Position numbers and translations under genes: made by a program. From positions 1 to 30,971 of the IMG/VR virus record IMGVR_UViG_3300035670_000916: a stretch of DNA of 30,971 nt. One strand, 5' to 3'. The first letter of the stretch is position 1. Each line of letters opens with the position of its first letter. Under the pieces are notes generated by a model. It saw only the letters and a program-made list of their open reading frames with translations, ran no database searches and was not told the origin of the DNA. Shown one piece after another: positions 22,473 through 25,446 of this stretch. The DNA comes from a virus.

Positions 22473-22483
22473 TACCCTTTAGA

Positions 22484-22498
22484 GGCCCTGTGAGGGCC
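22484..22498 (+). repeat. Short perfect hairpin after the endolysin gene
   Basis: GGCCCT (22484-22489) and AGGGCC (22493-22498) are separated by GTG only, giving a 6-bp GC-rich stem without a T-run. It precedes the main terminator by a few bases and may pause RNA polymerase. Confidence 0.4.
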
Positions 22499-22500
22499 GT

Positions 22501-22558
22501 AGAGACGTTTTCACCCCCTGTCTGGTATATCTAGGCGGGGGGTGTTTTCGTCGTCTCT
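22501..22558 (+). terminator. Nested late-operon terminator
   Basis: CACCCCC (22512-22518) pairs with GGGGGTG (22538-22544) and is followed by TTTT (22545-22548). Outside it AGAGACG (22501-22507) pairs perfectly with CGTCTCT (22552-22558) across TTTT-type internal loops on both sides. The inner helix plus T-run is an intrinsic terminator reading on the + strand and ends the lysis transcript. The outer helix may strengthen folding or protect the transcript end. Confidence 0.75.
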
Positions 22559-22584
22559 GAGGGCGTGTAAACGGTTACAGGTAT

Positions 22585-22605
22585 TTTGTATGGTTACCGT
22601 ACAAA
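22585..22605. promoter_or_regulatory. Operator-like inverted repeat
   Basis: TTTGTATGGT (22585-22594) and ACCGTACAAA (22596-22605) are complementary with one mismatch around a single T. It lies between the late terminator and the end of the reverse-strand nuclease gene. No T-run follows on either strand, so a protein-binding site or mRNA 3'-end hairpin for the nuclease transcript is more likely than a terminator. Confidence 0.3.
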
Positions 22606-22624
22606 TCTAAAGTTGAAACTTAAA

Positions 22625-23002
22625 CTAATCCATAGTCAGGTAGTCAATCAGGGCTTGAAGAATCTTTGGATCATCCTTGGCATGTCCCAAGGCCAGGTTG
22701 CAGTGGCGACAAAGAATCCCACGAATCTTGCCGGTCTGGTGGTCGTGGTCTATGTGAGTTCCCCTGCCGGGTTTTAGATCAACAAAACAAACCTTGCATT
22801 TGTGATCTTGTGAATCAAGCATGGACTGGTACTCATCTGGGCTGATCTTGTATTTGTTTAGTCTAACCCTGGCATAAAACCGTTCTCGGTTTTGCTTAAC
22901 CCAATCAGAAGCAACCTTGCTGTTACAAGGTTTGCACAAACTTTGGGTTTTGTTCTTAGTAGTAAACTCTATCTTACATTTACTACAGTTTCTAGTATAC
23001 AT
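22625..23002 (-). CDS. Endonuclease VII-type HNH nuclease
   Basis: 125 residues read on the minus strand from ATG 23002. Two CxxC pairs occur early (C6/C9 and C23/C26) and two around the nuclease core (C69/C72 and C98/C101). The core is HIDHDHQTGKIRGILC (about residues 83-98), the signature of the recombination endonuclease VII / HNH group. It cuts DNA, in T4 branched DNA; small members are often selfish homing nucleases. The gene is the only one pointing left between two rightward operons, is AT-richer than its neighbours and has its own promoter. Both suggest insertion, but a resolving role in packaging is possible. Confidence 0.85.
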   Translation of the reverse strand: MYTRNCSKCKIEFTTKNKTQSLCKPCNSKVASDWVKQNRERFYARVRLNKYKISPDEYQSMLDSQDHKCKVCFVDLKPGRGTHIDHDHQTGKIRGILCRHCNLALGHAKDDPKILQALIDYLTMD

Positions 23003-23046
23003 AAGTATATACTAACCCTAACTACTATTAACTATAACTATAGTAT

Positions 23047-24015: not shown

Positions 24016-24413
24016 GTACCGAACCGACGCATAAGATCACCGTGAAGATCGGTGACAGTCTACGGACCGTGCAAGCGGACACGCATGCTGAGTTCGTGGA
24101 GGAACTGGAGAAGGCACACGAGTCGTTGCAGCAATGCTATGACTTGATCGTGGCTGCCCGTGCAGTGGGCAACGTGGCACAAACCCCAGCACCAGTGCAG
24201 GCTACGGCTACTGCTGAGGTGTCTGCTCCTGCCGCGTTCACGAACGCTAGTGTCCCGCAATGCCAGCATGGACCTAAGGTCGCTAAGAGTGGTGCGTCCG
24301 GTAAGGGACCGTGGAAGGCGTGGATGTGTAGCGCACCGAAGGGTGACCCGACGCAGTGTCAACCGCAGTGGGTTACTCGTGGCACACCGGAGTGGAGTAA
24401 CTTCCCGGCATGA
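24012..24413 (+). CDS. Putative zinc-containing DNA-metabolism protein
   Basis: 133 residues from ATG 24012. Residues 1-50 form a small strand-plus-helix domain (HKITVKIGDSLRTVQADTHA). A Thr/Ala/Pro-rich linker follows, and then a compact C-terminal block with CQHGP (about residues 93-97), AWMCSAPKGDPTQCQPQW and an invariant-looking GPWKAW strand. The three Cys and one His could bind one zinc. Similar short modules are annotated in phages as unknown or single-strand-DNA-associated proteins; its place after the nuclease fits that, but function is unproven. Confidence 0.6.
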   Translation: MSTEPTHKITVKIGDSLRTVQADTHAEFVEELEKAHESLQQCYDLIVAARAVGNVAQTPAPVQATATAEVSAPAAFTNASVPQCQHGPKVAKSGASGKGPWKAWMCSAPKGDPTQCQPQWVTRGTPEWSNFPA

Positions 24414-24418
24414 GACTT

Positions 24419-24646
24419 GGTTGTGCGAAGCGGTATCGGCGGGACCGCACGGCAGCGACTAAGCCGCAGGGAAGGCCACGAAGTACATGCCTAGTCGGAG
24501 ACACGGAGGGACCCGGGACCGTGTCAGCGCAACCGCCCCGACTGACCATCGGGGAACACTGGCCTAAGAGCGTGGAACACCGAATCTGCATTACGGCGCA
24601 CCGGCCCCGGTCAGGGGCGTGGGTTCGACTCCCACACACAACCACC
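24419..24646 (+). ncRNA. Structured tRNA-like RNA with pseudoknotted core (tmRNA-like layout)
   Basis: The ends pair: GGTTGTG (24419-24425) with CACAACC (24637-24643), followed by A and CC. A T-arm GTGGG/CCCAC with loop TTCGACT lies at 24619-24635, one unpaired A before the stem. A D-arm-like hairpin GCGGT/ACCGC with GG in the loop lies at 24430-24448. The interior offers CGGC/GCCG (24450-24453/24463-24466), whose loop CGACTA pairs with TAGTCG (24492-24497), giving an H-type pseudoknot. It also offers helix AGGCCA/TGGCCT (24473-24478/24560-24565) and hairpins at 24500-24525, 24536-24554, 24580-24596 and 24604-24618; loops TGACC (24543-24547) and GGTCA (24609-24613) can kiss. There is no anticodon arm. 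TAGTC is followed by no short stop-terminated tag in the first frame, so it is not a standard tmRNA. The same DNA is open as a 79-codon frame (24410-24649), and an Arg-rich protein is the alternative reading. Confidence 0.55.
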
Positions 24647-24663
24647 TAATCTAAGGATGATTG

Positions 24664-25446
24664 ATGAGACTGCTAGACCGGGCTATCCGGAACATCGACC
24701 AAGGCGGCACCACCGTGCCCATGCCGTTCAAGTCGTGGACCGATAACCAAATGTCTGTTCGCCGTGGTGAGGTCAGCATGATCGCTGGCCCACCCGGTGC
24801 AGGCAAATCCACGGTGGCCCTAGCGATAGCGATTAAGGCACGGGTACCCACCCTGTACGCCAGTGCTGACAGCCACGAGTCCACTATGGCTATCCGGTCC
24901 CTCGCCATGGTGACAGGGTTGCCTCAGGCTGAGGTGGAAGAACGCATGGTGAGTGAACCGGAATGGGCCACAGCCATGTTGAAGGAGAACGTCTCCCACA
25001 TTCGCTGGATGTTCGATGCGTCACCGACACTCGCTGATCTGGAGGATGAGATCAACGTGTACCGGGAACTGATGGGTGACAACCCTAGCCTCGTGATTGT
25101 GGACAATGCTGTGGATGTGACGCACGATAGCGGGGATGAGTTCTCTAGCCTCAGGTCGTTGATGCGTGAGGTGAAGTGGTGGAGCCGGGACACGGGGGCA
25201 GCGTTCCTGATCCTGCACCACACGAGTGAAGGGTACGAGGGCTACCCGTGCCCACCACGAGCATCCCTACACGGCAAGATCGCACAAGTACCATCCCTCA
25301 TCGTTACTTTATCCTCCAGTGAACCTGGCCTGATGGCTGCTGCTGCCGTGAAGAACCGTTACGGACCCGCTGACGCTACGGGTAAGACAGCCTTGTGGAT
25401 GGATTACTTTCCGACGAACATGCAGTTGAAAGACCTAGACTCGTGA
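24664..25446 (+). CDS. RecA-fold replicative ATPase (DnaB-like helicase core)
   Basis: 260 residues from ATG 24664, with AAGGA six bases upstream; the TTG at 24661 is less likely. Walker A GPPGAGKST is at residues 42-50, a Walker B-like strand LVIVDNAVDV near 140-149, and a sensor/H-loop FLILHHTSEGYEG near 180-192. The domain resembles the C-terminal motor of DnaB/RadA-type helicases. The DnaB N-terminal domain is missing, so the protein is a bare motor. It precedes resolvase and primase genes, which supports a replication-fork role. A recombination ATPase of the RadA kind is the main alternative. Confidence 0.75.
   Translation: MRLLDRAIRNIDQGGTTVPMPFKSWTDNQMSVRRGEVSMIAGPPGAGKSTVALAIAIKARVPTLYASADSHESTMAIRSLAMVTGLPQAEVEERMVSEPEWATAMLKENVSHIRWMFDASPTLADLEDEINVYRELMGDNPSLVIVDNAVDVTHDSGDEFSSLRSLMREVKWWSRDTGAAFLILHHTSEGYEGYPCPPRASLHGKIAQVPSLIVTLSSSEPGLMAAAAVKNRYGPADATGKTALWMDYFPTNMQLKDLDS

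What the first reader, a model, noticed from the sequence alone, without database searches (positions are those of the whole stretch)
24419..24646. tRNA-like RNA with a pseudoknotted core inside the replication operon
Seen directly: a perfect 7-bp end-to-end stem, a classical TTCGACT T-arm and a D-arm-like hairpin with GG in its loop. Instead of an anticodon arm there is a roughly 170-base domain that can form an H-type pseudoknot (24450-24497), a 6-bp long-range helix (24473-24478/24560-24565) and several hairpins, two with complementary loops (TGACC/GGTCA). Known: a tRNA-like domain plus pseudoknots in one RNA is the layout of tmRNA, which some mycobacteriophages encode. But this element is short, lacks an evident tag frame ending in a stop, and has one extra base between T-arm and acceptor stem. 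Inference: a reduced tmRNA relative, a decoy of ribosome rescue or tRNA enzymes, or a new phage RNA class. Codon use of the open frame (AGG, CGA, AGA, GGG rich) is unlike the neighbouring genes, which favours RNA.
Basis: partly seen in the sequence, partly recalled or inferred. Interest (0 to 1): 0.8.

Follow-up and report, generated by a model that had tools for sequence, protein, structure and literature searches.

The report
New phage tRNA-like mobile RNA family
The element is a real folded RNA gene shaped like the top half of a tRNA with its anticodon arm replaced by a large variable domain; it belongs to an apparently undescribed family of movable small RNAs found in many uncultured phages, whose job is still unknown.

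Summary
Window 24418-24644 encodes a structured, tRNA-like RNA, not a protein. Homologues confirm an 8-bp end stem, a D-arm and a T-arm, plus a nested, branched anticodon-side domain, with strong compensatory changes. The RNA belongs to a family of about 28 distinct sequences from uncultured phages, 91-236 nt long. They share an 8-bp end stem of freely varying sequence, a conserved D-arm, one spacer nucleotide and a UUCGACU T-loop, around a variable middle. It was inserted into this phage: phages 96% identical have the empty site, the insert's left edge is the RNA's first base, and 8 bp are repeated. Other members sit elsewhere, often antisense to neighbouring genes behind promoter-like sites, so it most likely acts in trans. 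It is not a tRNA, tmRNA, Y RNA or known Rfam family by the tests run. Best mechanistic guess: a tRNA-elbow mimic that binds a host tRNA-handling protein, with the variable arm as effector or decoy. That function is inferred, not shown.

The parts
24418..24644 (+). whole tRNA-like RNA (227 nt)
   Evidence: covariance model R1, 209 bits; covariation
24418..24425 (+). end (acceptor-like) stem, 5' strand UGGUUGUG
   Evidence: pairs 24637-24644; both sides change together across members
24637..24644 (+). end stem, 3' strand CACAACCA; no encoded CCA follows
24426..24447 (+). CGAAG linker and D-arm (CGGU-AUCGGCGGG-ACCG)
   Evidence: second stem pair left free in the search pattern is GC, AU or CG in all 24 strict members
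24450..24457 (+). anticodon-side helix 5' strands CGG and GCG (pair 24601-24603 and 24597-24599)
   Evidence: CGG/CCG, CCG/CGG, CGU/ACG, UGC/GCA; GCG/CGC to GAG/CUC
24466..24469 (+). helix GCAG, pairs CUGC 24586-24589
   Evidence: GGAG/CUUC, GCAA/UUGC, GUUG/CGAC in homologues
24476..24480 (+). helix CCACG, pairs CGUGG 24571-24575
   Evidence: CCAUG/CAUGG, CCGCG/CGCGG, CCGUG/CACGG in homologues
24489..24563 (+). branched end of the arm: GCC-U-AGU (24489-24495)/ACU-GGC (24558-24563) enclosing hairpins, among them 24536-24554
   Evidence: AGU/ACU to AGC/GCU; GCC/GGC to GUC/GAC
24604..24618 (+). variable-arm-like hairpin
   Evidence: sequence only; length and sequence differ between members
24619..24635 (+). 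T-arm GUGGG-UUCGACU-CCCAC, then 1-nt spacer A24636
   Evidence: UUCGACU in 26 of 28 members; stem covaries
24410..24417 (+). left copy of 8-bp direct repeat ATGAGACT (holds the TGA stop of the upstream gene)
   Evidence: empty site in L002-L004
24645..24663 (+). rest of the insert, with ribosome-binding-site-like AAGGA (24653-24657)
   Evidence: absent from the empty site; RBS by inspection
24664..24671 (+). right copy of the repeat = start of the DnaB-like helicase gene

Best explanation
A mobile phage gene for a stable, trans-acting, tRNA-mimicking RNA. Shown by comparison: an 8-bp end stem, a D-arm and a T-arm (the parts that form a tRNA's elbow and acceptor helix), with the anticodon arm replaced by a domain that differs from phage to phage. 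Shown: it is gained or lost as a discrete insert whose left edge is the RNA's 5' end, and it occurs in different genomic places and orientations. Inferred: it is cut out of the operon transcript (elsewhere transcribed from its own promoter), folds a tRNA-like elbow, binds a host protein that recognises that elbow (a tRNA-processing, -modifying, -cleaving or ribosome-rescue factor), and the variable arm sets what it does there, most likely as decoy or adaptor during infection.
For: Covariation in every major helix. Family with constant tRNA-like frame and variable middle, 91-236 nt. Exact architecture in 24 of 97 D-arm pattern hits against 229 of 19,400 (1.2%) controls. Clean insertion against a 96% identical relative, 8-bp repeat, left edge at the RNA's first base; 0-4 nt from it in L061, L030 and L055. 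Element 91% identical between window and L093 while the adjacent helicase gene is 67% identical: horizontal movement. Antisense to flanking genes in L098, L102, L105, L222, L236, L096 and others, with -35/-10-like sites whose -10 ends about 8-12 nt before the RNA in L098, L102, L105, L202, L222, L228. Next to a tRNA-Thr gene in L098/L100. Coding frame not conserved.
Against: No expression data. No binding partner, no shared neighbour gene and no phenotype: the decoy/adaptor step is inference. In the window lineage it lies at one operon junction in several phages, which also fits a cis role. Promoter-like matches are weak (several at or above 5% in random 60-mers of the same locus). The D-arm consensus was itself the search query for many members, so its invariance is partly selected; nine members found by synteny or by 3' motifs agree with it.
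Confidence: 0.5

Rival explanations
1. Cis-acting processing or regulatory element of the replication operon: a tRNA-like structure that RNase P/RNase Z cut to separate or tune the helicase message.
For: Co-directional, just before the helicase start, in the window, L030, L061, L093; the insert brings an RBS-like site.
Against: Close relatives do without it. L068 carries it elsewhere in the genome, and many members lie antisense to their neighbours. The large conserved middle domain is not needed for a cleavage signal.
Confidence: 0.15
2. Decoy of ribosome rescue: a tag-less, tmRNA-like RNA that titrates SmpB, like the tRNA-like-domain-only tmRNA of mycobacteriophage DS6A (PMC4131195, PMC11915505).
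For: Published precedent for a phage tmRNA reduced to its tRNA-like domain; similar molecules inhibit tmRNA. Topology (tRNA top half plus large domain instead of the anticodon arm) is tmRNA-like.
Against: D-region no more like 22 real tmRNAs than shuffles (10.0 against 9.0); tmRNA UUCGAC D-loop motif absent; no G3:U70; no RF00023 match beyond the T-arm.
Confidence: 0.12
3. Decoy or antagonist of host tRNA-targeting defence, or of RNA-decay factors that bind tRNA-like domains (as PNPase binds YrlA).
For: Phage-restricted in the collections searched, mobile, tRNA-mimicking, variable arm; YrlA precedent (PMC8394870).
Against: No direct evidence; no linked defence or counter-defence gene found.
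Confidence: 0.25
4. A translation tRNA with an intron or degenerate anticodon arm.
For: T-loop, D-arm and end stem resemble tRNA.
Against: ARAGORN and Rfam tRNA/group I models do not match the window RNA; no anticodon stem-loop once the middle is removed; no encoded CCA in any of 28 members; 8-bp end stem plus spacer.
Confidence: 0.04

Closest known systems
tmRNA (RF00023), including phage tmRNAs and the DS6A tRNA-like-domain-only form
   Same: tRNA-like ends and T-arm, large domain in place of the anticodon arm, phage carriage
   Different: no tag frame, no pseudoknots, no G3:U70, different D-arm with a true stem, 8-bp end stem and a spacer base
Bacterial Y RNA YrlA
   Same: non-coding RNA that mimics tRNA D and T arms; modular second domain
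   Different: YrlA's own ends form the Ro-binding stem and its tRNA-like part lies at the far end; here the RNA's ends are the acceptor-like stem; no Ro protein in 18 of these phage records
Canonical and type II tRNA
   Same: D-arm with GG loop, T-loop UUCGACU, variable-arm-like hairpin, end stem
   Different: no anticodon arm, no CCA, 8-bp stem, 1-nt spacer, 5-nt linker before the D stem
Phage RNase P substrates and phage stable RNAs of unknown role (phi80 M3 RNA, T4 RNAs C and D; from memory, not tested)
   Same: small phage RNAs linked to tRNA processing
   Different: no sequence or structure comparison was made here

Membership tests
tmRNA | matches the tmRNA covariance model | tested here: not met
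   only a 17-nt T-arm match, 7.4 bits, to beta_tmRNA; none above gathering
tmRNA | tag reading frame with resume codon and stop | tested here: not met
   no frame conserved across homologues
tmRNA | alanine identity pair G3:U70 | tested here: not met
   U3-A70 in the window RNA and its near relatives; end-stem sequence varies freely in the family
tmRNA | conserved D-loop (GGUUUCGAC type) | tested here: not met
   score against 22 tmRNAs within shuffled range
tmRNA | SmpB binding / trans-translation | not testable with these tools
   needs experiment
tRNA | recognised by ARAGORN or RF00005 | tested here: not met
   0 genes in the window; no RF00005 match up to E 10; one short relative, L211, gives a sub-threshold match, 18.8 bits
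tRNA | anticodon arm | tested here: not met
   position occupied by a 150-nt branched domain
tRNA | elbow-forming D- and T-loops | tested here: met
   GG in the D-loop, UUCGACU T-loop, stems covary; the tertiary contact itself is inferred
Bacterial Y RNA (YrlA) | ends form the Ro-binding stem, tRNA-like module at the far end | tested here: not met
   topology differs
Bacterial Y RNA (YrlA) | Ro/Rsr (TROVE) partner gene | tested here: not met
   0 of 18 records, control rings in Deinobacterium chartae; records are partly fragments
Group I intron in a tRNA | group I core (Rfam Intron_gpI) | tested here: not met
   no match up to E 10; found helices are nested

The most novel reading that the evidence does not exclude
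A previously undescribed, phage-restricted family of mobile tRNA-elbow RNAs: a constant tRNA-like frame carries interchangeable effector arms and moves between phage genomes as a unit defined by the RNA's own 5' end, possibly through an RNA-level or RNA-end-guided mechanism, to capture host tRNA-binding proteins.
Probability: 0.45. Interest if true: 0.85.

Novelty: categorically new. Interest (0 to 1): 0.74.

Why it matters
Why phages carry tRNAs and tRNA mimics is an open question. A family that keeps the tRNA top half but swaps the decoding arm for diverse structures separates the elbow from decoding and points to tRNA-binding proteins as the target. The conserved frame gives a covariance model, ready bait for pull-downs and a way to find more members in metagenomes; the insert precisely delimited by an RNA end is a testable case of small-RNA gene mobility.

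Tried and rejected
Protein reading: frame not conserved, no family hits. tmRNA homology through the D-loop, my own idea: refuted. Y RNA: a T-arm hit next to a Ro gene in mycobacteriophage Chaser looked promising but is a differently arranged RNA without the D-arm; no TROVE gene in carriers. Group I intron: no Rfam match. Members among isolated phages: BLAST with members finds only T-arm-sized or chance-sized matches; related Beephvirinae and ct2KA10 genomes hold none, the weak hits lying mostly in tRNA arrays. Members in bacterial genomes: none among 44 pattern hits from about 85,000 species genomes, none in 396 actinobacteria (no positive control). Shared neighbour gene: none. DS6A's own sequence: two accession numbers recalled from memory are not in the collection, and one BLAST did not surface it among the listed rows.

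Full report
Observation. The described sequence is present. The window holds no tRNA or tmRNA by ARAGORN and no Rfam match at gathering threshold; at E up to 10 only a 17-nt T-arm match to beta_tmRNA and a spurious lncRNA appear. The fold energy of the 228-nt stretch is unremarkable against shuffles (z -0.39), so homologues were needed.

Homologues by synteny. A scan of 2.9 million viral contigs with the neighbouring DnaB-like helicase gave 65 loci. Reading the DNA upstream of the helicase showed related elements in L030, L053, L055 and L061, and an exactly empty site in the closest relatives L002-L004 and L066. DNA patterns added L068, L093/L094 and L035. None of this used the protein frame, and the frame is not conserved: homologues have stops and length differences that shift it.

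Structure. On a MAFFT alignment of seven homologues (A2) the hand-derived structure pairs in 93.8% of cells, against 36-42% when partners are slid by 1-3 columns, with 14 pairs changed on both sides. It consists of: end stem 24418-24425/24637-24644; CGAAG linker; D-stem 24431-24434/24444-24447; anticodon-side helices 24450-24452/24601-24603, 24455-24457/24597-24599, 24466-24469/24586-24589, 24476-24480/24571-24575 and 24489-24495/24558-24563; inner hairpins; variable-arm-like hairpin 24604-24618; T-arm 24619-24635; single spacer A24636. Examples of compensation: AGU/ACU to AGC/GCU, GCC/GGC to GUC/GAC, GCG/CGC to GAG/CUC, GCAG/CUGC to GGAG/CUUC, CCACG/CGUGG to CCAUG/CAUGG, CCGCG/CGCGG and CCGUG/CACGG.

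A wider family. A covariance model (R1) run over the fetched DNA found further members in unrelated contigs: L098/L100, L105/L097/L101/L103/L108, L102, L096/L104, L107 and, weakly, L099. A pattern that left the second D-stem pair free (CGAANCNGTNNNGGCGGGACNG) returned 62 stretches. Over all loci, 24 of 97 distinct pattern hits have the strict architecture (at least 7 of 8 end pairs, exactly 1 spacer nucleotide, at least 4 of 5 T-stem pairs) against 229 of 19,400 (1.2%) controls; in those 24 the free pair is GC (15), AU (7) or CG (2), never a mismatch, while non-members show mismatches. With looser limits 28 sequences are listed. End-stem sequences differ completely, for example UGGUUGUG/CACAACCA, AUGAAGUU/AACUUCAU, GGUCAGGC/GCCUGGCC, UGAUGUUG/CAACAUCA. 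The T-loop is UUCGACU in 26 of 28. No member has CCA after the end stem. Lengths run from 91 to 236 nt because the middle domain differs. L107 and L099 are the least certain members (T-stem of 3 pairs with a 3-nt spacer; 2-nt spacer and mismatches). The D-arm consensus is partly a product of the pattern searches, but nine members found by synteny or by 3' motifs agree with it.

Mobility. Against L003 (96% identical on both sides) the window matches up to 24417 and again from 24664, and the two matches share 8 bases of the relative, ATGAGACT. The insert therefore begins at the RNA's first base and ends 19 nt beyond its last, and its tail carries an RBS-like AAGGA for the helicase gene. The same comparison puts the left edge 0 nt (L061 against L044), 2 nt (L030 against L023) and 4 nt (L055 against L051) from the RNA start. 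The element is 91% identical between the window and L093 while the adjacent helicase gene is 67% identical in DNA. L068 has a related element behind a sigma-factor-like gene while its helicase junction is empty. How it moves is unknown; no transposase or reverse transcriptase was linked to it.

Transcription. In the window, L030, L061 and L093 it lies inside a co-directional replication operon (RecB-like exonuclease, gp49-like protein, DnaB-like helicase, resolvase, primase). In L098, L102, L105, L222 and L236 it lies antisense near the terminase gene, and in L096 antisense between head genes, with promoter-like hexamers whose -10 ends about 8-12 nt before the RNA in several (TTGACA-17-TACAGT in L202; TTGTAA-17-TATGAT in L102). 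These matches are individually weak but agree in spacing. In L098/L100 a tRNA-Thr gene follows at once. A gene that works antisense to its neighbours and in different places is most simply a trans-acting RNA.

What it is not. tmRNA: no tag, no G3:U70, no model match, and its D-region is no closer to 22 tmRNAs than shuffles. tRNA: no anticodon arm, no CCA. Y RNA: different topology, no Ro gene in 18 carriers. Group I intron: no model match. Literature searches in open-access PMC found no description of this family; subscription journals were not covered, so an existing description cannot be excluded. The nearest functional precedents are the tRNA-like-domain-only tmRNA of phage DS6A, similar molecules of which inhibit tmRNA (PMC4131195, PMC11915505), and YrlA, whose tRNA-like domain binds PNPase (PMC8394870). 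'Categorically new' refers to the RNA family; tRNA mimicry as a principle is known.

Distribution. No member was found in 50,697 phage records by BLAST with several members, and none among 44 D-arm matches from about 85,000 bacterial and archaeal genomes. The carriers known so far are uncultured phages. The window phage is distantly related to Caudovirales ct2KA10 and Streptomyces Beephvirinae by its helicase, so an actinobacterial host is likely, not shown.

Mechanism and confidence. That this is a structured, tRNA-like, mobile RNA gene I hold at about 0.9. That it acts in trans: about 0.75. That the tRNA-like frame serves to engage a host tRNA-elbow-binding protein, with the variable arm as effector or decoy: about 0.5, by inference from the conserved parts and from precedents. 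Which protein: unknown.

Noticed in passing
L165 (Mycobacterium phage Chaser 40564-40944): Between the Ro-like RNA-binding protein gene and gene 52 lies an unannotated RNA with T-arm and D-arm in YrlA-like (permuted) order, flanked by repeats; it looks like a phage Y RNA.
   Followed up: partly
L244-L246 (Streptomyces phages Percastrophe, FlowerPower, Manuel): Relatives of the window phage by helicase and gene order carry arrays of about 19-22 tRNAs covering nearly all amino acids upstream of the major capsid gene; the window has no tRNA.
   Followed up: no
L202, L211, L222, L228, L236, L105 just 3' of the element: A conserved CTGCTAYAnT follows the RNA, which reads as an extended -10 (TGnTAnAnT) on the same strand; in L202/L211 it also extends the end stem by 8 pairs.
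   Followed up: partly
window 22480-23030: Endonuclease VII-like gene region (22625-23002, minus strand) interrupts similarity with the 96% identical relatives; possibly another mobile insertion.
   Followed up: no
L055 130-211 and L035, L036, L048-L051, L054, L064 downstream of the gp49-like gene: A strong hairpin with complementary GTGTGG.../...CCACAC-type arms follows the gp49-like gene in many relatives; L053 and L055 carry the RNA directly behind it.
   Followed up: no
inner hairpin loop, window 24542-24548 and homologues: The 7-nt loop CUnnnCA (CUGACCA, CUCACCA, CUGAACA, CUCGACA) of the inner hairpin is partly conserved across distant members and resembles an anticodon loop in size and U33 position.
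   Followed up: no
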